This document shows positions 1-38,718 of a DNA stretch of 64,000 nucleotides, one piece after another. Within the stretch, counting starts at the first letter, position 1. Each line of letters starts with the position of its first letter. The translations under genes were made by a program, and so were the position numbers. This DNA is from Elusimicrobiales bacterium (GTDB taxonomy: Bacteria; Elusimicrobiota; Elusimicrobia; Elusimicrobiales; UBA9959), in the NCBI GenBank assembly GCA_028713125.1, contig JAQTOU010000003.1, positions 124,001-188,000 on the forward strand. Direction: 5' to 3'. Below the pieces are notes generated by a model. That model ran no database searches. It saw only the letters and a program-made list of their open reading frames with translations, and had not been told where the DNA came from.

Positions 1-900
1 CGGCCACCTCCCTGGCTGACGGCTACCTAAGTTCCGCGGACTGGGCCGTGTTCAACGGCAAACTTGCGGTTAACGGAAATGGTTCGACCCTGACCGGCCT
101 TACGAAGACGCAGGTGGGCCTGGGCAATGTTTCAAATACTTCCGACGCGGCCAAGCCTGTGTCCACGGCGCAGCAGACGGCGCTGGACCTGAAGGCTGAC
201 CTGACCGGGGCGGTGTTCAGCGGCGCGATCAGCGCCACTAACCTGTCCGGGACCAATACCGGGGACGAGAACGCCGGTTCGATAAAGACCAAACTGGGCG
301 CGGCCACCTCGCTGGCGGACGGCTATCTGACTTCAGTTGATTGGGCGGCGTTCAACGGCAAACTGGCTGCTAACGGGAATGGTTCCAGCCTCACCGGCCT
401 TACGAAGACGCAGGTGGGCCTGGGCAACGTTACAAACACTTCCGACGCTGCCAAGCCCGTGTCCACGGCCCAGCAGACGGCGCTGGACCTTAAAGCTGAC
501 CTCGCCGGCGCGACCTTCGGCGGCGCGATATCAGCCACAAATCTTTCCGGGACCAATACCGGAGACGAAACCGGCGCCTCGGTGAAGAGCAAACTGGGCG
601 CGGCCACCTCGCTGTCGGACGGCTACCTGACTTCCGTGGATTGGGCGGCGTTCAGCGGCAAGCTGTCGGCCAACGGGAACGGCTCGAGCCTCACCGGCCT
701 TACGAAGGCGCAGGTGGGCCTGGGCAGCGCGGATAATACCTCGGACGCCGCCAAACCGGTCTCCACGGCGCAGCAGACGGCCCTTAACCTGAAGTCCAAC
801 CTGGATTCACCGGCTTTCACCGGCACTGTTACCGGAATTACGAGCGCGATGGTTGGCCTGGGAAGCGTGAACAATACGGCGGACGCGCTGAAACCGGTCT
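1..900 (+). repeat. Tandem 300-bp (100-aa) repeats, three copies, inside the tail-fibre-like CDS
   Basis: Positions 1, 301 and 601 each begin cggccacctcNctg..gacggct; the period is exactly 300 bp. Confidence 0.95.
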
Positions 901-2159
901 CGTCCGCCCAGCAGTCGGCGCTGGACTTGAAGGCGAACCTCACAGGCGCGGCATTTACCGGCGCTATCACGGCCCCCAACTTATCCGGGAGCAATACCGG
1001 CGACCAGGTCTCGGTAACGGGCAATGCCGGGACCGTGACCAACGGCGTTTATACCACGGGGTCATACGCCAACCCGGCATGGATAACCAGCCTGGCGGCC
1101 AATAAGATAGACCTGTCCACGGTGACGGCGGCGATAACGTCCCTGCAGCTCGCCCTTTCTACCGCGGTCTATACTGTCGGGAACCAAACTATAGGCGGGA
1201 TAAAAACTTTCTCAAGCGCCATCGCCGGCGATATCAGCGGCAACGCGGCCACGGTGACGACTAACGCGAACCTTACCGGCGTAGTGACAAGCGTCGGCAA
1301 CGCTACCTCCATCGGCGCCGGCGCTATCGGCAACGCCATGCTGGCGAACGGGGCGGTCGCGAACCTGTCCGGCACAAATACCGGTGACCAGACCACAATA
1401 AGCGGCAATGCCGGAACCGTGACCAACGGCGTTTATACTACGGGGAACCAGACCATAGGCGGGATAAAAACATTCTCGAGCACCATAGCCGGAGATATCA
1501 GCGGCAATGCCGCCACGGCGACCAGCGCTGTGAGCGCCGGGAGAGCCGCGAATATAGCCGGCGGTTCTATCGGCCAGCTCCCGTACCAGACAGGTGCTGA
1601 TGCTACGGGTCTGCTTGCAGCCGGCACGCCGGGACAGGTACTGCAGAGCAATGGCGCGGCGGCGCCGAACTGGATAACTCCCTCCGGCGGTGATGTCTTT
1701 AAGGCCGGAACCCAGACTTTCACCGGGCAGAACACCTTTACCTCGACCATTACCGCCAAGGGCTACGCGAACGCGGCCCAGACCGTGGTAATTACGAATC
1801 AGACCTCTTTCGCGGCCGACGGCTCGGGAGTGGTATTGCTGACCTTCTCCGGGACCGCTAACGTCGCTACCGTCACCGGCTGCGCCTCGGGAGCCGTGGG
1901 GCAAGGCCAGATCGTAACTTTTGTGGAAGCGGCCTGGACCGTCGGCGGCGTGAGCTTCGTCGACACCCTGCGCGCCAGCGCCGCGGACGATACGATGCTC
2001 CTGAACGGCGTGGCTGGCATCTGGACGCCCATCGCCGACACCACTTCGATAGGCTCGGCCATCACCCTTATGTGCACCACGATCAATACGGCTACGCCGC
2101 CGCTGATCACCGCGGTGAAGCTCTGGATCGAGATCGGGCGTTCGAAAACTTCGGATTAG
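1..2159 (+). CDS. Repeat-rich phage-tail-fibre-like secreted/surface protein, 5' truncated by window start
   Basis: Frame is open to the window edge (upstream of the called GTG at 48 it reads ATSLADGYLSSADWAV). Repeated GLTKTQVGLGNVSNTSDAAKPVSTAQQTALDLKADLTGA modules, typical of phage tail fibre repeats. Confidence 0.8.
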   Translation, partial: ATSLADGYLSSADWAVFNGKLAVNGNGSTLTGLTKTQVGLGNVSNTSDAAKPVSTAQQTALDLKADLTGAVFSGAISATNLSGTNTGDENAGSIKTKLGAATSLADGYLTSVDWAAFNGKLAANGNGSSLTGLTKTQVGLGNVTNTSDAAKPVSTAQQTALDLKADLAGATFGGAISATNLSGTNTGDETGASVKSKLGAATSLSDGYLTSVDWAAFSGKLSANGNGSSLTGLTKAQVGLGSADNTSDAAKPVSTAQQTALNLKSNLDSPAFTGTVTGITSAMVGLGSVNNTADALKPVSSAQQSALDLKANLTGAAFTGAITAPNLSGSNTGDQVSVTGNAGTVTNGVYTTGSYANPAWITSLAANKIDLSTVTAAITSLQLALSTAVYTVGNQTIGGIKTFSSAIAGDISGNAATVTTNANLTGVVTSVGNATSIGAGAIGNAMLANGAVANLSGTNTGDQTTISGNAGTVTNGVYTTGNQTIGGIKTFSSTIAGDISGNAATATSAVSAGRAANIAGGSIGQLPYQTGADATGLLAAGTPGQVLQSNGAAAPNWITPSGGDVFKAGTQTFTGQNTFTSTITAKGYANAAQTVVITNQTSFAADGSGVVLLTFSGTANVATVTGCASGAVGQGQIVTFVEAAWTVGGVSFVDTLRASAADDTMLLNGVAGIWTPIADTTSIGSAITLMCTTINTATPPLITAVKLWIEIGRSKTSD

Positions 2160-2319: not shown

Positions 2320-5300
2320 ATGAGATTAATCAAATCGATAGTCCAGATGGGCCGGCTGCTCATGGCACTGACCCTGGTAGCCGGACCCACCGGCCCCGCT
2401 TTCGCGGGTCTCGCCGGCGCGCCGTCTTCCCTTAATAAGGAAGAAGCCGCAACGCTGACGGGCGGCGCTGAGAAAACTCAGAGCCTCCAGCCCCGCAGTG
2501 CGGGAAACTCAAAACTTCCGATGTATTTCGAGGCTAACCATGGCCAGACCGACGCTTCGGTAAAGTTCTTTACCCGCGCGGCCGGCTATAACCTCTACCT
2601 GACCGGGACCGAATCGGTCACGGTGATGCCCAAGGCCGCGGAGGTCAAGGGCCAGGAACCTGTGGTGGTGCGCATGACGCTGAAAGGCGGCAACGCCAAG
2701 CCGGCCGTCCAGGGCGTGGGCCTGCTGCCCGGCCGCACAAGCTATTTTTTCGGGAACGACAAGAAAAAATGGCAGGTCGGAGCGGAGCAATATTCCAGGG
2801 TGAAGTTCAACCAGGTCTATCCCGGCATCGACATGGTCTATCGCTTCTCCAAAGGCAACGCGGAATACGATTTCGTGGTGGCGCCCGGGGCTAATCCCTC
2901 GCGCATCATCCTTGGTTTCGAAGGCGCGAAGAGCCTCAGGCTGGACCCCAAAGGCAACCTGGTCCTTGGCGTCGAGGGCGGCGAGCTTACTTACAAGGCC
3001 CCCGAACTTTACCAGAAGCTGGGCAGCAAACAGGTTCCCGTGAAAGGGCGCTTCGTGCTCGCTTCCAACAATAACGTGCGGTTCGAAGTAGGGAACTATA
3101 TAAAGAGCAAGGAACTGGTGATCGACCCCCAGCTGTCCTATTCTACTTACCTCGGCGGCAGCGTCGAAGACAAAATTAACGCGATCGCCGTGGACGGGAC
3201 GAAGCAGGCCTATGTGACCGGCTATTCCCGCTCCGCGATGACCGGCTCCGGCGGCTTCCCCTCCACTACCCCGGCCGGCAGCCATACGCTCGCTGTGCAG
3301 GGTCCCGCCGAGAACGGCGGTTCGGACGTGTTCGTGGCGAAACTCAGCGCCGACGGGTCTTCCCTTTTATGGGTGGCCTGGCTGGGCGGCGGTCTCGACG
3401 AACAGGCTTACAGCATCGCTTTGGATAAATCAAGCGTCAGCACGCCCAAGGTTTTCATCACCGGCGTAACGGCTTCGGCCGGCGGTACCTCCTACCCCGT
3501 AGCCGGTCCCGCGAACGTGCTTAAAGATTGCGCCGTTAACCCGGGACTCTGGGCTTTCGTGACCGAGCTGCAGCAGCCCGCGAACATCCCCGCCCTGGTC
3601 TACTCCGGCTGCTGGGGCGGAGCGAGCGCTCTCTCAACAGTAGGCAATTCCATCGCCGTCGACTCTCTCGGCGCGGCTTATATAACAGGAACTACTTTCC
3701 AGACGGATTTCCCTGTCAGCCTGGGCATCCCGTTCCCTCACAACACGATGGGCGCCGCTTCGCAGGCGGCCTTCGTAACCAAGATCGCCCCTGCGGGCGC
3801 GGCCATAGGCTATTCCATGTTCATGGGGCCGCAGGACGTTATAACCAACGGCAACGCTATCACGGTGGACGCCGGTTTCCAGGCCTGGGTAGGCGGCATG
3901 ACGACTTCAAGCATGCTTCCCTCGGTGCTCGGCCACTTCTCCAGCTCGAAGATAGGAACGACGAACGCTTTCGTCGCTAAGATCAACGCGGCCGGCACGG
4001 GCCTGCTCTACGCTACCTATATCAACGGCAACTCGGATCAGGCGGCTACCGCCATCGCCCTGAACAATGGCGGCGCGGCGCCTTACCATGTGTTCGTGGC
4101 CGGCTGGACTCTGTCCTCTACCGGCTTTCCCTCCACCGCTTATTACAACCTGCCGGTTTCAGTGCGCCCCATAGTTTATCAGAAGGACCTGGTAGGCGCC
4201 GACGATCCTTTCATCCTGAGGCTGAACCCCGCTGAGCCGAACCCGGTCCCCGGCGCGGACAACCCCCTTGAAATGCAGTACGCGACCCACCTGGGCGCTA
4301 CCGGCGCGGACCGCGCTTACTCTCTCGCGCTCGACGACCTCGACGACGCCTATATCGCCGGCTGGACGCTTTCGTCCGACTGGACGCTTGCGGCCGACCC
4401 CGTGACCCCCGGCGCCAACGGCATCAACGTTACCGGCGCGACTACGCAGAACACCTCCGGAGGCCAGGACGCCTTCGTGGCGGCTATCGGTCCTACCGGG
4501 CAGTACCAGCCTTTCTTCACTTATCTCGGCGCGACCCCTCCCGGCCAGGCCGCGACCGGCATCGCTGTCGACTCGGCCCATAATATTTACGTGGCGGGCT
4601 ACACGCCGTCGGCCATCTTTCCTCTAGTGACCGGCTCGCTGATGGACGGCTCGACGCCGGCCAAGGCGATAAACCGCAGCGGAACCGCGGGCGCCTTCGA
4701 CGGCTTCGTCACGAAGATCGCCCCCGTGCTCACGTTCGGCGCGCCGCTGCCTCCTCCCGGAGTAGTCTGCACTATCACCGGCGTCAATCCCAGTTCCGGC
4801 TACCTTATAGGCGGCGACACCGTCACTATCACCGGCACCGGTTTCGACATCTCCCGCAGCACCGTGGAATTCGACGGAATAATTTCCTCGAGCTTCACCG
4901 TCTACGCTTCCTCTACCGTGATCGCGGCGGTCACCTCCAGCCATACCCTGGCCGGGGTGGTCCCGCTAACCGTGACGACGCCTAACGGAACCTGCTCGGC
5001 GAACTTCGCCTACGTCGTGCCCGTGGCTACCTGCACGATAACCAGCATCAGCCCGGTCTCGGGATTCACCGTCGGGGGAACTACCGTCACCATCATCGGC
5101 ACGGGTTTCTTTGGTCTCAATGTCTCGACCAACGTTACTTTCGGAGGAGTGGACGCCGTCAGCTATACGGTCAACGCTTCTTCCACGATGGTTTCGGCGG
5201 TCTCGCCCAGGCGTCCTCTTATAGGAACGCTTACCCCGGGCTCGGTCCTCCTTACGCTGAATACCAGCAGCGGCACGTGCACCGCGGTCTACGACTACGT

Positions 5301-5895
5301 CAACGCTCCGCCGTCCGTCTGCACCATCAGCAATATCACCCCCGGTTTCGGGTTTACCCCCGGGGGCAATGTGGTAACGGTCACCGGCACGGGCTTCTAC
5401 GGCTTCTCCGGCCCCGGCGGCGTGACTTTCGACGGGGTGAACGCTTCTGCCTACACGGCGAACGTTTCCTCCACCGTGATCACCGCGACGGTGCCCAGGC
5501 ACCCCCTGGTGGGCGCCCTGATGCCGGGAGTAGTGCCCTTCAGGGTCACCACCGGGAACGGAACCTGCTCGGCCTCCTATACCTATGTGCTGGCTCCCGC
5601 GGCCGCCAACGGCGTCTGCGGCGGGGAGGACTACTTCTTCCCCTCGCCGGCTACCGGCGATACGGCCAACTTCGCCTACTGCATGGCCCTCCCCGGGACG
5701 GTCAGGATCACTGTCTATAACGCTATCGGCGACCTGGTGGCGAAAATAGAGGACTCAAGGGCGGCCGGCGGACAGTTCTCGACGCTGAACACGGGCAGGC
5801 TGGCGACCGGGGTTTACCTCTACCGCCTTGAAAAAGACTACGGCGCCGGCAATTCCGCCGCCTCGAAAGTAAAGAAATTCGTAGTGCAGCATTAA
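2320..5895 (+). CDS. Secreted SBBP beta-propeller / IPT-TIG repeat protein with C-terminal T9SS-like sorting domain
   Basis: N-terminal signal; YFEANHGQTDASVKFF and DPQLSYSTYLGGSVEDKINAIAVD (SBBP-type); three CTIxxxxPxxGxxxGGxxVTIxGTGF TIG repeats; C-terminal VRITVYNAIGDLVAKIE..LATGVYLYRLE. Confidence 0.85.
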   Translation: MRLIKSIVQMGRLLMALTLVAGPTGPAFAGLAGAPSSLNKEEAATLTGGAEKTQSLQPRSAGNSKLPMYFEANHGQTDASVKFFTRAAGYNLYLTGTESVTVMPKAAEVKGQEPVVVRMTLKGGNAKPAVQGVGLLPGRTSYFFGNDKKKWQVGAEQYSRVKFNQVYPGIDMVYRFSKGNAEYDFVVAPGANPSRIILGFEGAKSLRLDPKGNLVLGVEGGELTYKAPELYQKLGSKQVPVKGRFVLASNNNVRFEVGNYIKSKELVIDPQLSYSTYLGGSVEDKINAIAVDGTKQAYVTGYSRSAMTGSGGFPSTTPAGSHTLAVQGPAENGGSDVFVAKLSADGSSLLWVAWLGGGLDEQAYSIALDKSSVSTPKVFITGVTASAGGTSYPVAGPANVLKDCAVNPGLWAFVTELQQPANIPALVYSGCWGGASALSTVGNSIAVDSLGAAYITGTTFQTDFPVSLGIPFPHNTMGAASQAAFVTKIAPAGAAIGYSMFMGPQDVITNGNAITVDAGFQAWVGGMTTSSMLPSVLGHFSSSKIGTTNAFVAKINAAGTGLLYATYINGNSDQAATAIALNNGGAAPYHVFVAGWTLSSTGFPSTAYYNLPVSVRPIVYQKDLVGADDPFILRLNPAEPNPVPGADNPLEMQYATHLGATGADRAYSLALDDLDDAYIAGWTLSSDWTLAADPVTPGANGINVTGATTQNTSGGQDAFVAAIGPTGQYQPFFTYLGATPPGQAATGIAVDSAHNIYVAGYTPSAIFPLVTGSLMDGSTPAKAINRSGTAGAFDGFVTKIAPVLTFGAPLPPPGVVCTITGVNPSSGYLIGGDTVTITGTGFDISRSTVEFDGIISSSFTVYASSTVIAAVTSSHTLAGVVPLTVTTPNGTCSANFAYVVPVATCTITSISPVSGFTVGGTTVTIIGTGFFGLNVSTNVTFGGVDAVSYTVNASSTMVSAVSPRRPLIGTLTPGSVLLTLNTSSGTCTAVYDYVNAPPSVCTISNITPGFGFTPGGNVVTVTGTGFYGFSGPGGVTFDGVNASAYTANVSSTVITATVPRHPLVGALMPGVVPFRVTTGNGTCSASYTYVLAPAAANGVCGGEDYFFPSPATGDTANFAYCMALPGTVRITVYNAIGDLVAKIEDSRAAGGQFSTLNTGRLATGVYLYRLEKDYGAGNSAASKVKKFVVQH

Positions 5896-5906
5896 CGGAG
5901 GATTTC

Positions 5907-7370
5907 ATGAAAATATCATCTATAGGATTAGGGTTTATCTCGGCCGCCATACTGTGCGGCCAGGCCTCGGCGGGTGAAACCGATTACGCCGCGGGCACCC
6001 GCGCCCTGCCCATGCAGCAGGCCGGCGGCACGGCGCGCGCCACGGCCATGGGGTCGGCCGCGGTCGCGCTCGACCAGGGCTCGGCGTCCCTGCTCTGGAA
6101 CCCGGCGGCTCTGAGCCGGATCAAATGTACGGAGCTCGGGCTCCATCATAACAGCGGCCTCGCCGGCATCAACCAGGAGATCGGCATCCTCGGCATGCCG
6201 CTGGGGGAAGCCAAGAAGGTATGCGACGGAAAGGAGTGCAACGGCGGTTCCCTGGGCGGGATCGCGGCCTCTTTTTCCTACCTCGATTACGGAAGTTTCG
6301 ACGGCAGGGATACCCTCGGCCAGAACATCGGGGACTATAAAGCGCGGGACTTTTCCGGCAGCATAGGCTGGGGCAAGAAATTGCTCCCCTACTTCGCCGG
6401 CGGCGTGGCGCTGAAGGTCAACCAGTCCATCTTCCCTGATAAGACGTATTTCAACTATGCCGCGGACATAGGCGTGTTATGGAACGTGATGCGCTCCCTG
6501 GACCTGGGCCTGACCTATTCCAATATCAGCCTCAAAAGCGGCATCGGCGACATGGTTTCAGGTTTGCGCCTCGGCGCGGCCTGGACCGTGGACAAGCACC
6601 TTCTGCTGACGGCTTCAGGCGAGCTGCAAAAAAGCGCGATGGACCGGCTGCAGGTGGGCGGAGAATACCTGATAGGCAATACCGAGAACAAAAAGAATAT
6701 TACGGCCCTCCGCGCCGGCTACCAGCTTAACTACCCCGATCCCCAGTTGAGCGGCCTGACCGGCCTGACCATGGGCATCGGTTTCCAGTTCACCCAGTCC
6801 ATGGCGCTTGATTATGCCATCGTACCCGTCGGAGACCTGGGCGCTTCGCATCGCCTGAGCCTGACCGTGAAGTTCGATTGCCCCAAAAAGCGCAAACCGG
6901 TCGTGGTCATGGCCCTGGAAGTTCCGGCCGAGCCCGCGCCCGCTGTTCCGTCGCAGACGGCGTTTGTCCAGCCCGCGGCGCCCGCGGTCCCGCCTGTTGT
7001 GCTCAAGTGGGTCATCCTGGAAGATTCGCATTTCGACTTCGACTCCTCCGTCCTCAGGCGCTCCGGCATGTCGGCGCTGAGGCAGAATATCCAGCTGCTT
7101 AAGGATAATCCCAAGGCCAAAGTGCGCGTTTCGGGGTATGCCTCCGCCAGCGGCACCGAAGAGTATAACCAGCGCCTGAGCGAGAGAAGGGCTGTCGCCG
7201 TCACGACGTTCATGATCAAGGAAGGCATCGCGCCTGACCGGATCGTCACGGTCGGTTTCGGGGAGCTGCGGCCCGCGGAGTTCGAGGAAGACCCTGATCT
7301 GATCCACACTAACGCCGCTAAAGCCAACAGGCGGGTAGAGCTGACTTCGCCCGGGCAGCGGATGCAGTAG
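5907..7370 (+). CDS. PorV/UPF0164-like outer-membrane beta-barrel fused to C-terminal OmpA domain
   Basis: ARATAMGSAAVALDQGSASLLWNPAALS N-terminal motif; C-terminal FDFDSSVLRRSG..VSGYASASGTEEYNQRLSERRAVAV OmpA-like motif; starts 12 bp after the upstream stop. Confidence 0.82.
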   Translation: MKISSIGLGFISAAILCGQASAGETDYAAGTRALPMQQAGGTARATAMGSAAVALDQGSASLLWNPAALSRIKCTELGLHHNSGLAGINQEIGILGMPLGEAKKVCDGKECNGGSLGGIAASFSYLDYGSFDGRDTLGQNIGDYKARDFSGSIGWGKKLLPYFAGGVALKVNQSIFPDKTYFNYAADIGVLWNVMRSLDLGLTYSNISLKSGIGDMVSGLRLGAAWTVDKHLLLTASGELQKSAMDRLQVGGEYLIGNTENKKNITALRAGYQLNYPDPQLSGLTGLTMGIGFQFTQSMALDYAIVPVGDLGASHRLSLTVKFDCPKKRKPVVVMALEVPAEPAPAVPSQTAFVQPAAPAVPPVVLKWVILEDSHFDFDSSVLRRSGMSALRQNIQLLKDNPKAKVRVSGYASASGTEEYNQRLSERRAVAVTTFMIKEGIAPDRIVTVGFGELRPAEFEEDPDLIHTNAAKANRRVELTSPGQRMQ

Positions 7371-7454: not shown

Positions 7455-7772
7455 ATGACAAAAACGGAAAAGATGATAGAAGCTGGACTCGGGCTGGCGG
7501 CTCTCGCCGCGCTTGGAACTTACCTTCTTTACGGCAAGAGGGGCGCGGAGAACCGCGAAAAGATCTCCGGCTGGATGCTCAAGCTGAAAGGCGAGGTCCT
7601 GGAAAAAGCCGAAGAGATAAAAGACCTGAACGAGCAGGAGTATTACAAGATAGTGGACGAGGTCACGGAGCGCTACTCCAAGGTGCAGAAGGTGGGCGCT
7701 GAGGAACTCAAGCATTTGACGGGTGAGCTTAAAGGGGCCTGGGCGCACCTGAACCGGGAACTGGTGAAGTAA
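7455..7772 (+). CDS. Small YtxH-like protein (one TM helix plus coiled coil)
   Basis: aaggaga RBS; MTKTEKMIEAGLGLAALAALGTYLLYGKRG then a charged helical tail. Confidence 0.65.
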   Translation: MTKTEKMIEAGLGLAALAALGTYLLYGKRGAENREKISGWMLKLKGEVLEKAEEIKDLNEQEYYKIVDEVTERYSKVQKVGAEELKHLTGELKGAWAHLNRELVK

Positions 7773-30115: not shown

Positions 30116-33100
30116 TCAATAAAGTACCGCTAATTTGAATTGCTGCCTTTCAGTTTTGCCGGCATATTTCTTTTCTATGACGCACACGTAGCCGCCCGGC
30201 GCGGCGATCTTTCCCATGCCGTTTCGTCCCGTCCAGGGCCAGACCTTGTTGCCCGCCGAAGTTTCGGCGAGCGTCTTTTCATATACCAGGTCCCCCTCCA
30301 GGGTAAATAATTTCAAAGTCACTTTCGCCGGGGCTTTCAGATAAAAACCAAGCTGGGTCGGCCCGGCCATCGGATCGAACGGGTTGGGCCAGTTATAAGG
30401 CTGGACCATGGGGGACTCCTGGTTAAGGGACCAGACGGGGATGCCCGGCCCCTGATCCGAATAATCACTGATCCCCCCGGCATTGTTTTCCGCGCGCACC
30501 CGGGAGAAAACGGTCTTGCCGCTCGGCAGCCCGGTCTCCAGCGAGGAGAGGTTAAGGCCCATATTCTTGGCGCTTAAGAGGTCATTGCCGTTGAGAGCCG
30601 TCCCCAGGTCAAGCAGATAGGCTTTTACCCCGCTCTCCTGGTCGGCGGAGGCGGACCAGGAGAACAGCGCGGCGGAATCGTAGGAGTATTCGCGGTCCGC
30701 CTGCACGGCCCCGAGGCGGTCGGGCGCGGTCCGGTCCACCAGCACGCCGGGACTTGAGACGGGAGAGTATTGGCTCACGATCCCGCCTTCGTCGATGGCT
30801 TTGACCTTCAGGTAATAGGTCTTGCCGTTGGCCGCGGGGTCCAGGGTGAAGCTCGCCAGCGGACCGATCTCCGAATCGACGAGGACGTTGAAGTCCGCGG
30901 GCGTGGTGCCGACGGACACTACGTAGGTGGAAATAGCGGTGTCGCCGAAGGCCAGGGCGGGCGGCCAGTTCCAGGTGATCCCCGAAGTTGCGGTGAAGGC
31001 GCCGGGCACCGGGACGGGCTGGCCCGGCGGGATCACCGTGCTTAAGGCTACGTGAAAGGGCCCGACTTCGGCCGTCTTGTAGCCGAGCGCCTGGGAATTG
31101 TAGCTGCGCAGGTGGAGGAACCAGAAGCCGTTGCCCGTGGCGGTGGTCGTCAGGATCTCCAGGGCGCTCCAGCCCTGTTCCTGGTCGTTCCAGGCGTGGG
31201 TGGCGTTCCTGTCCCAGATAGCGCGGTAGAAGAGCAGGCCGCCCGTCCCGGTGGAGACCGTGTTTACGAAACTGAAGGTAGTTACGCTGACCGGGCCCGT
31301 TGTGGTGCTGGCCGAGACGGCGGGCGCGGCCGCGTAGGTCAGCTGGCCGCCGAGCTCCAGGCCGGAGGTAGGTATTCCGTTGTAGTTGCGCGCGCTCACG
31401 CGGGCGTAGTAAGTCGTGTTCGCCGCCAGCGCGAAGTTCGCGCTCACCCCCGCGGCGGCGGCACTTGCCCACAGGAGCGCGAAGTCGGGTCGCGTGGAGA
31501 TCTCCGCCTCGTACATCGTACCGGAGGGGTTGTCGCCCGCCGACCAGTTGACGGCCAGGCCGTTGTCTCTCAATGTGAAGGAAGATGGGGAGGATTGGGG
31601 GGGCATGGCCAGGGTCGCGGTGGAGATTATGGGGCTGGAATAGGGGCCGGCATTTCCGGCAAAATTGACTGCTTTAACCCTGGCTGTGTAGGTTGTGTTC
31701 GGAGTCAGCCCCGTGAAGGCGGCCGGGATGCTCAGGGTGGTAGAGGAGAATGAAACGCTCACGAAGTTGTCTTTTGAGATCTCGGCCACATAAGCAGTGT
31801 TCTGCGGGTTGCCGTTGGCCGTCCAGCCGAACTCAAGTCCCGAACTGGTCACCGCGCCGAAAGGCGCGGCGGCAAGGGCGGGCGACAGGGGCAAGGTGAC
31901 CTCTGTAACTACCTGCGAGTAGCCGCCAGGAACATTGTTCATATTCACGGCTCTGGCGCGGGCGTAGTAGGTAGTGTTGGGGAGCAGCCCGCCGAAGGTC
32001 TGGCTGAGGGCCAGGGTCGAGGCCGAGGAGATCGCCGCGCCGGGAGCGAAGCCCGCGCTCGACAGCTCGACGGTGTAGGAGGTCCCGCCGGGATTGCCGC
32101 CGGAAGCCCAGGTGAAGGTGAGGGTGCTGGCCGAGACCGCGGTGAACGGCTGGGCCGCATTCAGCGGGTCGGTGGCCAGGGTGGCCGTAGAGCGTATAGG
32201 GCTGGAGTAGGGACCGTCCACCCCGAGGAAATTAATCGCCTTTACGCGCGCCTGGTAGACGGTATTTGCCGCCAGGACGGAGAAAACCGCGCTGTTTGAC
32301 AGCGTGGCGGCGGAAGCGAGCATGGTGTCGAAATTGTTCCCGGAGAGCTCGGCCGCGTAGCGCGTGCCGGGCGGGTTCCCGCCGCCGCTCCAGTTGAAGG
32401 TAAAGCTGTTAGTGCTTATGGCCGTGAAAGGCCCGGCGGAAATAGCGGGGGGCAAGGTATAGGTAACAGTGGAGACCGCGCCTGTGTAGGGGGTGTAATC
32501 GCCGCCGGCCCCGACGGCGCGGACATGCGCGTAATAGGTGGTGTTGGCCGCGAGGCCCGTGAGAACGTAATTCAGATTGGTCGTGACGTCTGAAGAGACC
32601 GGGGCAGAGAAGCCGACGTTGGTGGAGAACTCCAGGTTGTAGCCGGTACCGGCGGCATTACCGCCGTCGCCCCAGGCGAAGGTAAGCCCTCCGGCGGAGA
32701 GGTTCAGAAAAGGCGCCGCGACGTTGACCGGCGCCGAGCCGGCGGTGGCGGTGGAAACTATGGGCGAGGAAAACTGGCCGGGGATGCCGGCGAAGTTGAC
32801 GGCCCGGACCCGCGCCTGGTATACGGTGTTGGCCGTAAGCGCGGAGAACGACGCGCTCGTAAAGCTGGTCCGGGCGGCGCTGGACACGCTGATAAACCCG
32901 TCTTTAGAGATCTCCGCCGTGTAGAGCGTCCCCGCCGGGTTTCCGCCGTTCTCCCAGCTGAAAGTGAAGCTGCCGGCAAAGACTCCCGTGAACGGCGGGG
33001 CGGCGGTAAACAGGGGCAGCGTGAGCGTTACGGTTGAAACCGCGGGGCTGGAATAGGGGCTTGCCAGCCCGCCGGTTCCGAGGGCGCGGACCCGGGCGTA

Positions 33101-36100
33101 ATAAGTGGCGTTGACCGACAGGCCCGTGAAAACGTAATTGAGGTTGACGGTAAAGTACGAAGAAACGGGGGCCGAGAAGGCGCTGTTCGTGGAGATCTCC
33201 GTATTGTAGTTCGTGCCGGGGGGATTGCCGCCGTCTTCCCAGGCGAAGGTTAGGCCGTCGGCCGATACGTTAGGGAAAGGCGCGGCGGCGTTGCCCGGCG
33301 CCGAACTGGCGGTGACGGTGGAAACTATCGGCGAGGAATACTGGCTCGGGACGCCGGCGAAGTTAAAGGCCCGGACCCGCGCCTGGTATACCGTGTTGGG
33401 AGAAAGCGCGGAGTAGGATGCGCTCAGGGAGGTGGTCTGTACCGCGCTGGAGACGCTTACAAAACCGTTCCCGGACAGCTCGGCTGCATACACGGTGTTC
33501 TGCGGATTGCCGCCGCCCGTCCAGCTGAACGTAATGCCAGAACTGTTTACCCCGCTGAAAGGCGCGGCAGGCAGGGCGGGCGGGAGCGTTAAAGTGACCG
33601 CCGCTTCGGCAGGAGAGTAACTGCCGGGCACATTATCCATGTTCACGGCCCTGGCGCGGCCGTAGTAGGTAGTATTAGGCAGCAGGCCGCTGAAAGTATG
33701 GCTGAGGGCAAGGGTCGAGGCCGAGGAGATAGCCGTGCCGGGCAGGAAACCGGAGCTTGACAGCTCTACGGTGTAGGCGGTTCCGCCGGGATTGCCGCCG
33801 TCGGCCCAGGTGAACGTAGCGGTGCCGGCCGAGACCGCGGTGAAAGGCTGGGCCGAATTTAACGGGTCGCTGGCCAGGGTGGCCGTAGAGCGTATCGGGC
33901 CGGAGTAGGGACCGTTCGCGCCCAGGAAGTTGATGGCCCTTATGCGGGCCTGGTAGACGGTATTGGGCGTCAGCCCGGAGAAGGCCGCGCTGGTCGACAG
34001 CGTGGAAGCCGAAGCGATAAGAGCATCGAAGCCGTTTTTGGAGAGCTCGGCCGCATAAAGCGTGCCGGGCGGATTGCCGCCCTCGCTCCAGCTTAAGGTC
34101 AAGGTATTGGTGCTGACGCCCGTAAAAGGCGAGGCCGTTATGACAGGGGCCAAAGTGTAGGTGACCGTGGAGACGGTGCCTGTAAAGGCGGTGAGGTTGC
34201 CTCCTACCCCGACGGCCCGTACATGGGCATAATGGGTGGTGTTGGCCGGGAGCCCGGCGAAAAGGTAATTAAGATTAGTCGTGAAGCCGGAAGAGACGGG
34301 AACCGAGAAATCGCTGCTGGTGGATATTTCCGGGTTGTAGCTGGTTCCAGGGGCATTGCCGCCGCCCCCCCAGGAGAAGGTAAGGCCCTCGGCGGAAAGA
34401 TTCGTGAAGGGCACAGCGGCGTTGACCGCCGCTGAAATAGCCGTGGCGGTGGAAACTATAGGAGAGGAAAACTGGCCCGGTATGCCGGCGAAGTTCACGG
34501 CCCGCACCCGCGCCTGGTATACCGTGTTAGCTTCGAGCGCCGGGAAGTCCGCGCTGAGCGCGCTGGTCTGTACCGCGCTGGACACGCTGACGAAACCGTC
34601 TTTGGAGATCTCCGCGGCGTAGAGCGTCCCTCCGGGATTCCCCCCGTTCTCCCAGCTGAAAGCGAAGCTGCCGGCGAAGACCCCCGTGAAGGGAGGGGAA
34701 GCGGTAACGGGTGGCAGCGTCAGCGTCGCCGTGGACACCGCGGGGCTGGAATAAAGGCTTGCCAGCCCGCCGGCCCCGAGGGCGCGGACGCGGGCGTAAT
34801 AAGTGGTGTTGACCGACAGGCCAGTGAAAATAAAATTAAGGTTGGTGGTGACTGCCGAAGACACGGGAGCCGAAAAGCCGCTGCTGGTGGAGAGCTCGGG
34901 ATTGTAATTCGTTCCCGCGCTGTTGCCGCCTGACTCCCAATTGAAGGTTAAGGCGCCGGCCGAGAGGTTTATAAACTGGACCGAAGCGTTCAGCGGGGGC
35001 GCTGTGTTTGTAATGGTAGTGACGGCGGCGGTGAAAGCAGTATCCAGGCCGTTATGGTTTTGAGCTTTGACGCGGGCATAGTACAGGGTATTCATTGCCA
35101 GGCCGGTGAAGCCGGCGCCGGCATTGAGGGTGCTTGAGGACCGGGCCAGCGAGGCGAAGTTGTCGGTGGAGATCTCGGCGATATAGCGGGTCTGCGGCGG
35201 GTTGCTGCCGCCGTTCCAGCTGAAATTAAAACCGGTAGAGCTGACGCCCGCAAGCGAGGGATCGGCGGGTTCAGCTGCCAGGGTCGCTGTGTAGGTAATG
35301 GAGGTAAACTCCGTAGGCAAACCGGCTATATTGATGGCCCGTACCCTGAAATAATACGTGGTATTGGGCGCCAGGCCCGCCGGGGCCGAGGAGAGGGACG
35401 TGATATATGAAGCGGAGACGTTGCCCCCGAAATTAATATCGGTGGAGCGGTTCACCTCGTAAATGGTGTAGCCCGGATTAGCGGGCTCACCCGCGCTCCA
35501 GTTCAGGCTTAAAGAATAGGCGGCCAATGCGGTGAAGGTGCTTGTGGCCGCGCCCGGCAGGCCCGCCAGGGTGTAGGTGGAAACCGGGGCTGAAGGAAGG
35601 CTGTCCGAGTGGTCCGTGAAAGCCGTTATATAGCGGGTGTAAGCGGTGTTAGGCAGCAGGCCGGTCTCCGTGGCCGAGAGAGTATCGCTGGAGGTTGCAA
35701 GCTGGGGTAAGCGGTCCTGGGTGCGATAGCTTACGGTCCCGCTGTACAGCCTGTACTTCCTTGAAGCTTCGGCCGCGTCTCCCCAATCAGGGGCGACCGT
35801 CCAGCGCCATGTGATGGAGGTCGCGAAGATATCCTGGAATTCCAGGCCGGCGGGGGGGGAAGCTACCGTGGCGAAAGAGACCGCGCCAATGAAACCGGCT
35901 TGGGCGTGAGGGCTGCCTTCGCTGCCGCTGCCGGATTTAGCTCCTTTAGAGCCGCCCGCCGTGCTGATGGCTACCGAGAAGGCCGCCTGCCTGTAGTAGA
36001 TCTTAACCCGTCCGCCGCCCCCGCCTCCACCGGGATAGGCCGTATCCCCGGACCCCCCGGCGGCGTCCCCGCCCTTGCCGCCATTGGCGTTGATGACGCC

Positions 36101-36823
36101 GTCCACGGTCGCGAAATCCATGCACCGCAGGAGCAAGCCCCCGCCGGCGCCGCCGCCGCCGGCGTCGGCCGGCCTGGTGGAGTTGCCGCCCGGCACGCCG
36201 CGCACGAAAATAGTGCCCGTCAAAGTGAAGGAGGAGGCTTCCAGATAGATAGAGGCGCCGCCCTGGCCGCCGCTTCCTCCTGTCTGCGTCCCGGAGCCGC
36301 CGCCCCCGCCCCCGCCGGAGCCGGGGAAAATGGAGCCGGTAGAGACCGGCAGGGTGCTGTCGTCATAAGCGGCGCCGCCGTCTCCCAGCACTCCGTCCGA
36401 GCCGCTGCCGTTGCCGCCATCTCCGCCGTAGCCGCCCCCGCCCCCGCCCATATTAGTATAGGCGCCTATGCCCGGGCCCCTTCCGTCGCCGTCTCCGCCG
36501 GGCTGTCCCGGATCGCCGCCTATCCCGCCGACCTCGCCGCGGCCGGATCCGTTCAGGAGGCCGGGTATGGAGATGGTGGAGGCGAAGATGACCAGGGGCG
36601 TGGCAGGGGTCACGAAGACCGTGGTTCCCGCATTTACCTGGAAGAGCCCGACATTAGTGAAGACGCCGCTGAGGACATCGTTAGGCGAGCAGGGAATAGA
36701 ATTGTCAGCCGTGCTTCCGGGTCCGCAGATAAGATTCTGGCCAGCCAGGTCCCTTCCGGAGATAGTGGCCGCTCCGGCCGGGGCCGGCAGCGTCAAAAGA
36801 TAAGCGAGGAGGAGGCGTATCAT
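30116..36823 (-). CDS. Giant (2235 aa) secreted protein: Gly-rich N-terminal region, about 16-18 FN3 domains, C-terminal FlgD/T9SS-like beta domain
   Basis: Repeated TFSWxxGGNPxGTxYxAExS..LxxNTxYxARVRAxNxxG; C-terminal NPFDPMAGPTQLGFYLKAPAKVTLKLFTLEGDLVYEKTL. Confidence 0.88.
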   Translation of the reverse strand: MIRLLLAYLLTLPAPAGAATISGRDLAGQNLICGPGSTADNSIPCSPNDVLSGVFTNVGLFQVNAGTTVFVTPATPLVIFASTISIPGLLNGSGRGEVGGIGGDPGQPGGDGDGRGPGIGAYTNMGGGGGGYGGDGGNGSGSDGVLGDGGAAYDDSTLPVSTGSIFPGSGGGGGGGSGTQTGGSGGQGGASIYLEASSFTLTGTIFVRGVPGGNSTRPADAGGGGAGGGLLLRCMDFATVDGVINANGGKGGDAAGGSGDTAYPGGGGGGGRVKIYYRQAAFSVAISTAGGSKGAKSGSGSEGSPHAQAGFIGAVSFATVASPPAGLEFQDIFATSITWRWTVAPDWGDAAEASRKYRLYSGTVSYRTQDRLPQLATSSDTLSATETGLLPNTAYTRYITAFTDHSDSLPSAPVSTYTLAGLPGAATSTFTALAAYSLSLNWSAGEPANPGYTIYEVNRSTDINFGGNVSASYITSLSSAPAGLAPNTTYYFRVRAINIAGLPTEFTSITYTATLAAEPADPSLAGVSSTGFNFSWNGGSNPPQTRYIAEISTDNFASLARSSSTLNAGAGFTGLAMNTLYYARVKAQNHNGLDTAFTAAVTTITNTAPPLNASVQFINLSAGALTFNWESGGNSAGTNYNPELSTSSGFSAPVSSAVTTNLNFIFTGLSVNTTYYARVRALGAGGLASLYSSPAVSTATLTLPPVTASPPFTGVFAGSFAFSWENGGNPGGTLYAAEISKDGFVSVSSAVQTSALSADFPALEANTVYQARVRAVNFAGIPGQFSSPIVSTATAISAAVNAAVPFTNLSAEGLTFSWGGGGNAPGTSYNPEISTSSDFSVPVSSGFTTNLNYLFAGLPANTTHYAHVRAVGVGGNLTAFTGTVSTVTYTLAPVITASPFTGVSTNTLTLSWSEGGNPPGTLYAAELSKNGFDALIASASTLSTSAAFSGLTPNTVYQARIRAINFLGANGPYSGPIRSTATLASDPLNSAQPFTAVSAGTATFTWADGGNPGGTAYTVELSSSGFLPGTAISSASTLALSHTFSGLLPNTTYYGRARAVNMDNVPGSYSPAEAAVTLTLPPALPAAPFSGVNSSGITFSWTGGGNPQNTVYAAELSGNGFVSVSSAVQTTSLSASYSALSPNTVYQARVRAFNFAGVPSQYSSPIVSTVTASSAPGNAAAPFPNVSADGLTFAWEDGGNPPGTNYNTEISTNSAFSAPVSSYFTVNLNYVFTGLSVNATYYARVRALGTGGLASPYSSPAVSTVTLTLPLFTAAPPFTGVFAGSFTFSWENGGNPAGTLYTAEISKDGFISVSSAARTSFTSASFSALTANTVYQARVRAVNFAGIPGQFSSPIVSTATAGSAPVNVAAPFLNLSAGGLTFAWGDGGNAAGTGYNLEFSTNVGFSAPVSSDVTTNLNYVLTGLAANTTYYAHVRAVGAGGDYTPYTGAVSTVTYTLPPAISAGPFTAISTNSFTFNWSGGGNPPGTRYAAELSGNNFDTMLASAATLSNSAVFSVLAANTVYQARVKAINFLGVDGPYSSPIRSTATLATDPLNAAQPFTAVSASTLTFTWASGGNPGGTSYTVELSSAGFAPGAAISSASTLALSQTFGGLLPNTTYYARARAVNMNNVPGGYSQVVTEVTLPLSPALAAAPFGAVTSSGLEFGWTANGNPQNTAYVAEISKDNFVSVSFSSTTLSIPAAFTGLTPNTTYTARVKAVNFAGNAGPYSSPIISTATLAMPPQSSPSSFTLRDNGLAVNWSAGDNPSGTMYEAEISTRPDFALLWASAAAAGVSANFALAANTTYYARVSARNYNGIPTSGLELGGQLTYAAAPAVSASTTTGPVSVTTFSFVNTVSTGTGGLLFYRAIWDRNATHAWNDQEQGWSALEILTTTATGNGFWFLHLRSYNSQALGYKTAEVGPFHVALSTVIPPGQPVPVPGAFTATSGITWNWPPALAFGDTAISTYVVSVGTTPADFNVLVDSEIGPLASFTLDPAANGKTYYLKVKAIDEGGIVSQYSPVSSPGVLVDRTAPDRLGAVQADREYSYDSAALFSWSASADQESGVKAYLLDLGTALNGNDLLSAKNMGLNLSSLETGLPSGKTVFSRVRAENNAGGISDYSDQGPGIPVWSLNQESPMVQPYNWPNPFDPMAGPTQLGFYLKAPAKVTLKLFTLEGDLVYEKTLAETSAGNKVWPWTGRNGMGKIAAPGGYVCVIEKKYAGKTERQQFKLAVLY
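31640..35035 (-). repeat. Higher-order duplication: two 1698-bp blocks, each of about six FN3 domains
   Basis: gtagagcgtat at 32187 and 33885; tctccgcNgNgtagagcgtcc at 32911 and 34609; both offsets 1698 bp. Boundaries approximate. Confidence 0.8.
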
Positions 36824-38718
36824 TTTAGCGCAGCCTCCATCTTGGCCTTAAGCTTTAAAGCCCCCTCGTTGCCAGGATCCAGTTCAAAGATACGGGACAG
36901 GGTTCTGGATGATTCCTGGTATTGCTTCTTTAAGTACTGGTCCACCGCCACATAATAAAGTCGCTCAGCTTCTTTCTTGAGTTCGGGTTTTATTTTGATG
37001 TGGACGGCGCTGCGGGCGGCTTTTAATTTCTCGCTGATCCCGGGAGCGGCGGGGGCCATTTGCAGTATCGCCTGGTAGGCCGCGACGGAGGCTTTAAAAT
37101 CTTTTTTTTCATCTTCGAGGGCGGCCTGCGCGGATAACTGCTCCACCTTTTCCCTTGTTGCCTGGTCCAGTTCCGCAAGAAGCGTTTTTGTCCGCTCATT
37201 GGCGCCGTCCGCCGCCAGCGCTTTTTTGGCTTCGGCGACGGCTTCGGCTAAAAGACCCTGTTCCCTGAAGCTCTGCGCGCGGGCCAGGAACTGCGAAACC
37301 TGGACGTCCAGGATCTCCTTCTGCGCCCGGGCGAGCATTTCCTGCTCCTGGGTCCCCAGGCGGGATTTTATAGTTTCAATAGCCTGCCTGGCCTCTTCGT
37401 TGGCGGGATCTACCTGGAGCGCGGCTTTCCAGTATTCAAGGCTGATAAGGATATTTCCCTGCTGGTACTGCTGCCTGGCCAGGATGACCGAGCTCTCGGA
37501 GATCTGGCTGCTGAACTGCCGGGCGGCTTCGGCCTTGAGCTCTTCAAGCTTCCCCTCTACCTGCTTATTGGAGGGGTCCAGAAGGTCCGACTTTTCCAGG
37601 TTGCCGATAGCCGCGGCCAGGTTGCCCTCTTTGGCCGAATTAAGTCCTTCCAGGTAATAGCTGCGGGCCAGGCTCCTGGCCTCCTCCTGGTCCAGCCTTT
37701 TCATGCCGCGTCTGATCTGTTCGGCCCTCTCGGGGCCTGTCATCCCGAATTTAAGCGAGAAAGAGATCATGTGGCTTGCCTCTATCTCGTGCATCAGGAC
37801 CGCGTAATCGAACTGGTAATTGGTGAACTGCGCCCCGGCGCCCAGTGAAAGGCCTTTGGCCTCCAGCCCGGCGCGGATGGCGAACTTTTCCAGGTATCGG
37901 AATTCCGAACCGATGCCCGGGTGGAACCTTGAGGCATAATAGTTGGACCGCGCGGCCAGAAGGGTTTTAAAATCTTTGCCGACAGGGAGCGCGTAAGCCG
38001 GAGAGACATCTATCACCCTCGGAAAAGTAACCGCTTTGGACACCAGGGTGACCGATGGCTTCATGATATTCCTGACTACGAGGCCCAGGGAAAAACCTTT
38101 CCCGTTGCGGTAGAGCAGACCCGCGTCGGCCCCGGAGCCGGAGCCGCTCACGGTATCTATCCTCTGGACGATATTCTTTACGCCGAAGCCGACGCTGATC
38201 CGCCCGGGAATACTGCGGGTCTGGATCGCGGGGATCGTGAGCGCCCAGCCCAGCTGGAACATGGTGTTCGTGATGGAGAAAGCGGTCGGGGCGTCATAAG
38301 GGGCCTCCCGCTTCTGGAAATTGCCGCTGCCCTGGCTGGTGTACCCGGCCCCGATCGCGCCGAAGCTTTTCAGGGGCATCCCGTAGCCGATAAAATCATT
38401 GCTGGTCCCGCCGAAAAGAGTGATATGGTTGATCGTCAGTTCCGGTTTTGTGAGCATGGAGAGGCCGGCCGGGTTCCAGTAGATCGCGCTTGCGTCGTCG
38501 GCTATGCCGGCAAAGGCGCCGGCGAGCCCAAGGGCGCGCGCGCCCGCCCCCTGCCTGGAAAAAGAACCCGGCAGGCCGCCATCAGGCTGCGCCGGGACGC
38601 CGGGGGGGAAAATCGACAGAGAGGGGCCGAGAATACAGGCGGCAAGAAGCATCCGGCCTTTACCACTGAAGGAAAGGCGGCTTGTCCGCGAAACTTTTTC
38701 TTCGCCTGTATGCGGCAT
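36820..38718 (-). CDS. PorV/UPF0164-like beta-barrel fused to TPR/coiled-coil C-terminus
   Basis: GARALGLAGAFAGIADDASAIYWNPAGLSMLTKPELTINH; multiple TPR-like repeats; overlaps the FN3 gene by 4 bp. Start may be ATG 38652. Confidence 0.82.
   Translation of the reverse strand: MPHTGEEKVSRTSRLSFSGKGRMLLAACILGPSLSIFPPGVPAQPDGGLPGSFSRQGAGARALGLAGAFAGIADDASAIYWNPAGLSMLTKPELTINHITLFGGTSNDFIGYGMPLKSFGAIGAGYTSQGSGNFQKREAPYDAPTAFSITNTMFQLGWALTIPAIQTRSIPGRISVGFGVKNIVQRIDTVSGSGSGADAGLLYRNGKGFSLGLVVRNIMKPSVTLVSKAVTFPRVIDVSPAYALPVGKDFKTLLAARSNYYASRFHPGIGSEFRYLEKFAIRAGLEAKGLSLGAGAQFTNYQFDYAVLMHEIEASHMISFSLKFGMTGPERAEQIRRGMKRLDQEEARSLARSYYLEGLNSAKEGNLAAAIGNLEKSDLLDPSNKQVEGKLEELKAEAARQFSSQISESSVILARQQYQQGNILISLEYWKAALQVDPANEEARQAIETIKSRLGTQEQEMLARAQKEILDVQVSQFLARAQSFREQGLLAEAVAEAKKALAADGANERTKTLLAELDQATREKVEQLSAQAALEDEKKDFKASVAAYQAILQMAPAAPGISEKLKAARSAVHIKIKPELKKEAERLYYVAVDQYLKKQYQESSRTLSRIFELDPGNEGALKLKAKMEAALK

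What the first reader, a model, noticed from the sequence alone, without database searches (positions are those of the whole stretch)
2320..7370. Giant secreted SBBP/TIG protein paired with a PorV-OmpA fusion barrel
A 1191-aa secreted repeat protein with a C-terminal T9SS-type-A-like domain is followed 12 bp later by a UPF0164/PorV-like barrel that carries an OmpA peptidoglycan-binding domain. PorV is the known T9SS shuttle for CTD cargo in Bacteroidetes. A PorV fused to OmpA would be a cell-wall-anchored variant. No PorU/SprA core genes lie in the window, so export mechanism is inference.
Basis: partly seen in the sequence, partly recalled or inferred. Interest (0 to 1): 0.75.

Follow-up and report, generated by a model that had tools for sequence, protein, structure and literature searches.

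The report
Secreted giant with its own anchor barrel
A large surface-type protein from an Elusimicrobiota bacterium is encoded directly before an outer-membrane barrel that looks built to receive its tail signal and hold it to the cell wall, as part of a type 9-like secretion system in a phylum for which I found no published report of one.

Summary
2320-5895 encodes a secreted DUF7948/SBBP/TIG protein with a C-terminal domain (CTD) of T9SS type-A kind. After an 11-nt gap holding a Shine-Dalgarno site, 5907-7370 encodes a PorV-family barrel with a C-terminal OmpA domain. The organism is an Elusimicrobiota MAG. The barrel model has 14 strands and its best PDB match is a chain of the SprA/PorV/substrate complex. 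The pairing holds in all 18 assessable close Elusimicrobiota loci; in two of them the passenger is different but the CTD and barrel are kept. The missing translocon was found: all 61 genomes searched (own plus 60 relatives) carry a divergent SprA. The genome has 28 PorV/PorP-like barrels, 21 beside a CTD gene, and barrel and CTD distances mirror each other (r=0.67). PorU sortase, GldL, GldM and GldN were not detected. Best reading: the barrel is a dedicated carrier and anchor for this cargo, doing in one chain what PorP plus PorE do in Bacteroidota. Peptidoglycan binding is plausible but one contact residue (Asp) is Ser. Export and anchoring remain inference.

The parts
2320..5895 (+). Cargo gene: 1191-aa secreted DUF7948/SBBP/TIG protein with C-terminal T9SS-type-A-like CTD
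   Evidence: orthologs
2320..2406 (+). Predicted Sec signal peptide (MRLIKSIVQMGRLLMALTLVAGPTGPAFA)
   Evidence: read from the sequence; no signal-peptide program was run
2527..3129 (+). DUF7948 (residues 70-270)
   Evidence: PF25778 1.1e-55
4513..4623 (+). Best of four SBBP beta-propeller repeat matches (residues 732-768)
   Evidence: PF06739 1.6e-18
5323..5586 (+). Best of three TIG/IPT domains (residues 1002-1089)
   Evidence: PF01833 7.3e-23
5623..5892 (+). CTD, proposed secretion and sorting signal (residues 1102-1191, ends KVKKFVVQH)
   Evidence: model pLDDT above 90 over most of it; best PDB fold match PorU 6za2; conserved while the passenger differs in L174 and L175
5897..5901 (+). Shine-Dalgarno GGAGG in the 11-nt intergenic gap
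5907..7370 (+). Partner gene: 487-aa PorV/PorQ-family outer-membrane barrel fused to an OmpA domain
5997..6875 (+). 14-stranded FadL/PorV-type barrel with N-terminal plug helices (residues 31-323)
   Evidence: NF033709 103.5 bits; 14 strands in the AF2 model; top PDB match 8gl6_F, T9SS RemA-CTD complex
6876..7010 (+). Low-confidence Pro/Ala-rich linker (residues 324-368)
   Evidence: pLDDT below 50 over 329-365
7011..7346 (+). OmpA C-terminal-like domain (residues 369-480); S413 (7143-7145) sits at the canonical Asp, N421 and R428 are kept

Best explanation
The two genes are a cargo and carrier-anchor pair of a type 9-like secretion system. The DUF7948/SBBP/TIG protein is exported to the periplasm by its signal peptide (inferred). 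Its CTD is recognised by the PorV-like barrel encoded next to it, which docks on the SprA-like translocon encoded elsewhere in the genome. The cargo passes through SprA and stays on the cell surface bound by its CTD to the barrel. The barrel's OmpA domain, in the periplasm, holds the complex to the peptidoglycan. One chain would thus do what PorP (barrel) plus PorE (OmpA domain) do as separate proteins for type B cargo in Porphyromonas. Shown by sequence and structure prediction: the gene pair, the domains, the fold matches, SprA homology, genome-wide pairing and mirrored divergence. Inferred: export, CTD-barrel binding, surface location, wall anchoring, and what powers transport.
For: Barrel: NF033709 over its cut-off; 14 strands, plug helices and a C-terminal OmpA domain in the model; best of 350,542 PDB chains is 8gl6_F from the T9SS RemA-CTD substrate complex, E 1.6e-10, and PorE's C-terminal domain (6top) is among the matches. 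CTD: TIGR04183 over its cut-off in the genome search; best PDB fold match PorU 6za2. Adjacency: a CTD gene at -1 to 31 bp in 18 of 18 assessable close Elusimicrobiota loci (with for L174 and L175), the passenger different in L174 and L175 with the CTD kept (49-50% identity). SprA: 61/61 genomes, E 8.5e-22 in the own genome; an Elusimicrobiota SprA profile hits only SprA among all PDB chains, E 7.6e-22; hhalign to Bacteroidota SprA 100% probability over 1646 columns; of 17 genomes tested together SprA is in 12 and absent from five proteobacterial ones. Genome: 19 of 28 barrels have a CTD gene directly upstream and 2 more directly downstream; Mantel r=0.67, P=5e-5 over 19 pairs, r=0.61, P=0.0003 without four pairs held to be PorP/type-B-like. 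Precedent: PMC9143113, PMC10994853, PMC7192894.
Against: No PorU/C25 sortase, no GldM or GldN although both are found in 3/3 Bacteroidota in the same searches, only noise for GldL. The window CTD is below the curated cut-off when scored as a whole protein, and CTD models also resemble FlgD Ig-like domains. The OmpA domain lacks the contact Asp (S413), whereas another PorV-OmpA protein of the same genome keeps GHTD. Mirrored divergence can also come from co-duplication of gene pairs.
Confidence: 0.7

Rival explanations
1. Carrier only: the barrel collects the CTD cargo from SprA, but the OmpA domain does not bind peptidoglycan; it binds a periplasmic partner or is a spacer.
For: S413 replaces the Asp that contacts diaminopimelate in PorE and Pal; a sister barrel without OmpA (about 330 aa, 61-66% identical) sits next to another SBBP-CTD protein in several genomes; other barrels carry HEAT, CsgG/LpoB or TPR modules instead.
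Against: Asn421 and Arg428, the other two side-chain contacts, are kept and the fold matches Pal and PorE; another barrel of the genome has a LysM domain, also a wall-binding module.
Confidence: 0.35
2. The barrel secretes its neighbour by itself, as a two-partner system, without SprA.
For: Strict adjacency and a one-to-one pair layout.
Against: The fold is the FadL/PorV 14-strand type with N-terminal plug helices, not a TpsB/Omp85 type, and is too narrow for a giant folded cargo (general knowledge); SprA is conserved in every relative searched.
Confidence: 0.06
3. No secretion system: the C-terminal domain is an ordinary Ig-like structural domain, the barrel is a small-molecule FadL-type channel, and the pair is merely co-transcribed.
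For: Sub-threshold CTD scores, FlgD_ig cross-hits, FadL and TodX among the fold matches.
Against: CTD kept while the passenger changes, 21 of 28 barrels beside a CTD gene, SprA present in the genomes of this clade and absent from five proteobacterial ones, mirrored divergence.
Confidence: 0.12

Closest known systems
PorP-PorE-PG1035 complex (Porphyromonas gingivalis) and SprF-SprB (Flavobacterium johnsoniae), PMC9143113
   Same: A 14-strand FadL-family barrel holds one cognate CTD cargo; in F. johnsoniae the PorP-like proteins are several and thought cargo-specific; an OmpA domain links barrel to cell wall (PorE).
   Different: Here barrel and OmpA are one chain; the barrel is PorV/PorQ-family and the CTD is type-A-like, not PorP with type B.
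PorV of the T9SS (6h3i, 8gl6; PMC10994853)
   Same: Same fold, same CTD type, SprA homolog present.
   Different: PorV serves many type A cargoes in Bacteroidota and hands them to PorU; here many barrels each sit beside one cargo, no PorU was found, and this one has a C-terminal OmpA extension.
PorE OmpA_C-like domain (6top, PMC7192894)
   Same: OmpA fold, Asn and Arg peptidoglycan contacts kept.
   Different: Contact Asp replaced by Ser; attached to a barrel rather than to TPR/propeller domains.

Membership tests
Type 9 secretion system | SprA/Sov translocon in the genome | tested here: met
   TIGR04189 in 61/61 genomes, below the curated cut-off; PDB profile search hits only SprA; hhalign 100% over 1646 columns to Bacteroidota SprA
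Type 9 secretion system | Cargo with type A or B CTD | tested here: met
   20 TIGR04183 matches at E <= 0.01 in the genome, 15 marked over the cut-off; fold match to PorU; TIGR04131-like CTD below its cut-off beside a PorP/SprF-like barrel
Type 9 secretion system | PorU C25 sortase | tested here: not met
   The NF033707 matches listed lie only in its C-terminal CTD part; PF01364 0/21 genomes, but no positive control rang in that search
Type 9 secretion system | GldL/GldM (PorL/PorM) motor | tested here: not met
   GldM absent from own genome, found in 3/3 Bacteroidota; GldL only noise-level; a diverged motor is not excluded
Type 9 secretion system | GldN/PorN ring protein | tested here: not met
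   0/10 outside Bacteroidota, 3/3 within
Type 9 secretion system | GldK, SprE, SprT, PorX/PorY | not tested
   no search was made for these
PorV/PorQ family (NF033709) | Score over the curated cut-off of 90 | tested here: met
   103.5 bits
PorV equivalog (NF033710) | Score over the curated cut-off of 250 | tested here: not met
   38.9 bits
OmpA peptidoglycan-binding domain | PF00691 over cut-off and OmpA fold | tested here: met
   72.4 bits; matches to 4g4w, 6top
OmpA peptidoglycan-binding domain | Asp, Asn, Arg peptidoglycan contacts (Asp576, Asn584, Arg591 of PorE) | tested here: inconclusive
   N421 and R428 kept, Asp replaced by S413
Type 9 secretion system | SprA-dependent export of the cargo | not testable with these tools
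   needs a cultured relative

The most novel reading that the evidence does not exclude
Elusimicrobiota run a T9SS-like export system outside the phyla where it is reported, with SprA but without the GldLMN motor and PorU, in which most cargoes have their own carrier-anchor barrel and the barrels carry interchangeable periplasmic modules (OmpA, LysM, HEAT, CsgG/LpoB, TPR).
Probability: 0.45. Interest if true: 0.82.

Novelty: new variant of a known kind. Interest (0 to 1): 0.66.

Why it matters
Recent papers hold that T9SS genes are confined to the FCB phyla (PMC11285876). A SprA homolog in all 61 genomes searched, with many CTD-barrel pairs in the genome examined, widens that range and raises the question of what drives transport without a detectable GldLM motor. 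The fusion offers a direct, testable model of how a surface protein is tied to the wall, and the paired barrels offer a natural code of CTD-barrel recognition.

Tried and rejected
The first CTD profile was spoilt because minus-strand loci were read on the wrong strand; rebuilt. I first read the passengers in L174 and L175 as ice-binding-like; Pfam does not support this, so they are called different passengers only. OmpA matches in Desulfobacterota, Nitrospirae, Nitrospinota and Helicobacteraceae loci are not taken as orthologs of the fusion: the two that were checked (L187, L206) have an OprF/OMP_b-brl-type barrel, the others were not checked. Some protein-family calls failed on coordinates or frame and were repeated. 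Plasmid search: no match. Papers: no hit describing T9SS or SprA in Elusimicrobiota in the library; the library lacks many journals. One paper search failed on its terms and was not repeated.

Full report
OBSERVATION. Both ORFs are present at the stated coordinates. The upstream protein has a signal-peptide-like start, DUF7948, four SBBP and three TIG matches and a C-terminal domain close to the T9SS type A model. The downstream protein is a PorV/PorQ-family barrel with an OmpA domain. They are separated by 11 nt with a GGAGG site, which suggests one transcript.

ORGANISM. The window is G000:C26:124001-188000 in a 3.48-Mb genome listed as 100% complete. Named relatives are Elusimicrobia MAGs.

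STRUCTURE. With an alignment of 31 sequences (the window protein and 30 relatives) the barrel model (mean pLDDT 71.5; most of residues 41-323 at 70 or above) shows 14 strands, N-terminal plug helices, a low-confidence linker and a C-terminal OmpA domain. Its best match in the PDB is 8gl6_F, from the T9SS complex with RemA-CTD substrate; FadL and TodX follow, and PorE's OmpA domain (6top) is among the OmpA matches. The CTD model (pLDDT mostly above 90) matches PorU 6za2 best.

CONSERVATION. Full-length fusion matches (61-100% identity) occur in 12 of 101 genomes including the own one, so the fusion is patchy within the family. Among the close loci with enough upstream DNA, 16 of 16 are preceded by an SBBP-CTD protein at -1 to 31 bp. 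Two further loci, L174 and L175, are preceded at 5 and 13 bp by a protein with a different passenger but the same CTD, and there the CTD passes Pfam's cut-off. So it is the CTD, not the passenger, that goes with the barrel. A divergent barrel in FCPU426 (L185) also follows an SBBP protein with a weak CTD. A further PorV-OmpA fusion occurs in an unclassified bacterium (L189). The adjacency refutation test is survived.

TRANSLOCON. SprA (TIGR04189) gives collinear sub-threshold matches in one ORF of about 1800 aa in the own genome and similar sub-threshold matches in the 60 relatives searched, none in 14 controls. A profile of 16 such proteins hits only F. johnsoniae SprA among all PDB chains (E 7.6e-22). 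Profile-profile alignment to Bacteroidota SprA covers 1646 columns at 100% probability, with stronger scores to a set of Ignavibacteriales, Delongbacteria and Caldipriscus proteins and to a set with FCPU426. Of 17 genomes tested together, the 12 positive ones include Bacteroidota, Ignavibacteriales, KSB1, Delongbacteria, FCPU426 and Elusimicrobiota; the five negatives are proteobacterial genomes. Whether the other positive genomes also hold CTD-barrel pairs was not surveyed.

GENOME-WIDE PATTERN. The genome has 28 PorV/PorP-like barrels in the set examined; 19 have a CTD gene directly upstream and 2 more directly downstream. The CTD model for that count was built from the genome's own TIGR04183 hits; by TIGR04183 alone, 16 of 20 matches lie within about 1 kb of a barrel on the same strand. 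Distances among barrels and among CTDs correlate over the 19 upstream pairs, r=0.67, P=5e-5, and r=0.61, P=0.0003 when p15-p18 are left out. Of those four, the barrels of p15 and p16 carry PorP_SprF and TPR matches and that of p17 a LysM match, and the p15 CTD scores as type B at 32 bits, below the cut-off of 35; the barrel of p18 was not scanned. Several barrels carry other C-terminal modules: HEAT, CsgG/LpoB, LysM, TPR, and TSP3-OmpA.

WHAT IS MISSING. PorU's model matches, in the rows listed, only through its own CTD and C25 was not found (no positive control rang). GldM and GldN are found in 3/3 Bacteroidota but in none of ten other genomes, including Ignavibacteriales with a strong SprA. 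GldL gives noise. Diverged versions cannot be excluded.

ANCHOR. In PorE, Asp576, Asn584 and Arg591 contact peptidoglycan (PMC7192894). The window protein has S413, N421, R428; S413 is invariant in the 16 sequences of the first alignment and held by 20 of the 23 rows of the wider set that have a letter there. Another PorV-OmpA protein of this genome keeps GHTD. Binding is thus likely altered but not excluded.

MECHANISM. In F. johnsoniae, PorV's extracellular loops bind the CTD inside the SprA pore (PMC10994853). In P. gingivalis, PorE (OmpA domain), PorP (barrel) and a type B cargo form a complex held to anchor the cargo (PMC9143113). The window pair combines both: a PorV-like receiver fused to a PorE-like wall domain, next to its cargo. 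Export and binding themselves were not tested.

NOVELTY. A 2024 paper says T9SS genes are absent outside the FCB phyla (PMC11285876). I found no report from Elusimicrobiota in the library. The pieces are known kinds; the fusion, the one-barrel-per-cargo layout and the phylum are new as far as I could check.

Noticed in passing
window 30116-36823 (-) and 36820-38718 (-): A 2235-aa FN3-repeat protein with a weak CTD (FlgD_ig-like) overlaps by 4 bp a PorV-like barrel fused to TPR repeats: a second pair of the same kind in the window.
   Followed up: partly
G000:C35:~226000-269206 (L128 holds its end): An open frame of 14,446 aa ending in a CTD, followed about 500 bp later by a PorV-like barrel; several relatives have frames of 10,240-12,767 aa with a match in the same part of the PorU model.
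   Followed up: no
window 48-2159 (+), start lies before the window (L110:7696-11160): 1154-aa tail-fibre-like repeat protein overlapping a PorV-like gene by 4 bp; homologs lie upstream of the SBBP gene in several relatives. No Pfam match up to E 0.01.
   Followed up: partly
own-genome barrels in L122, L130, L131, L125, L139, L134, L138, L132: PorV/PorP-like barrels with C-terminal HEAT, CsgG/LpoB, LysM, TPR or TSP3-OmpA modules.
   Followed up: partly
L187:1909-6384, L206:1617-6378: In loci of an unnamed bacterium (STA_72) and a Desulfuromonadales bacterium, adhesin-like proteins with an ice-binding-like domain are followed at 3-19 bp by an OMP_b-brl-type barrel with an OmpA domain: a similar adhesin-plus-OmpA layout, without SprA in the one of these genomes that was checked (L187).
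   Followed up: partly
G000:C11:313770-318365 (-) and C11:331821-335555 (-): Kelch/CarboxypepD_reg and FN3/CarboxypepD_reg proteins of 1531 and 1244 aa with CTDs; frames of like size with the same match occur in several relatives.
   Followed up: no
window 7455-7772 (+): Small YtxH-like gene directly downstream of the pair, 96% identical in the nearest relative.
   Followed up: no
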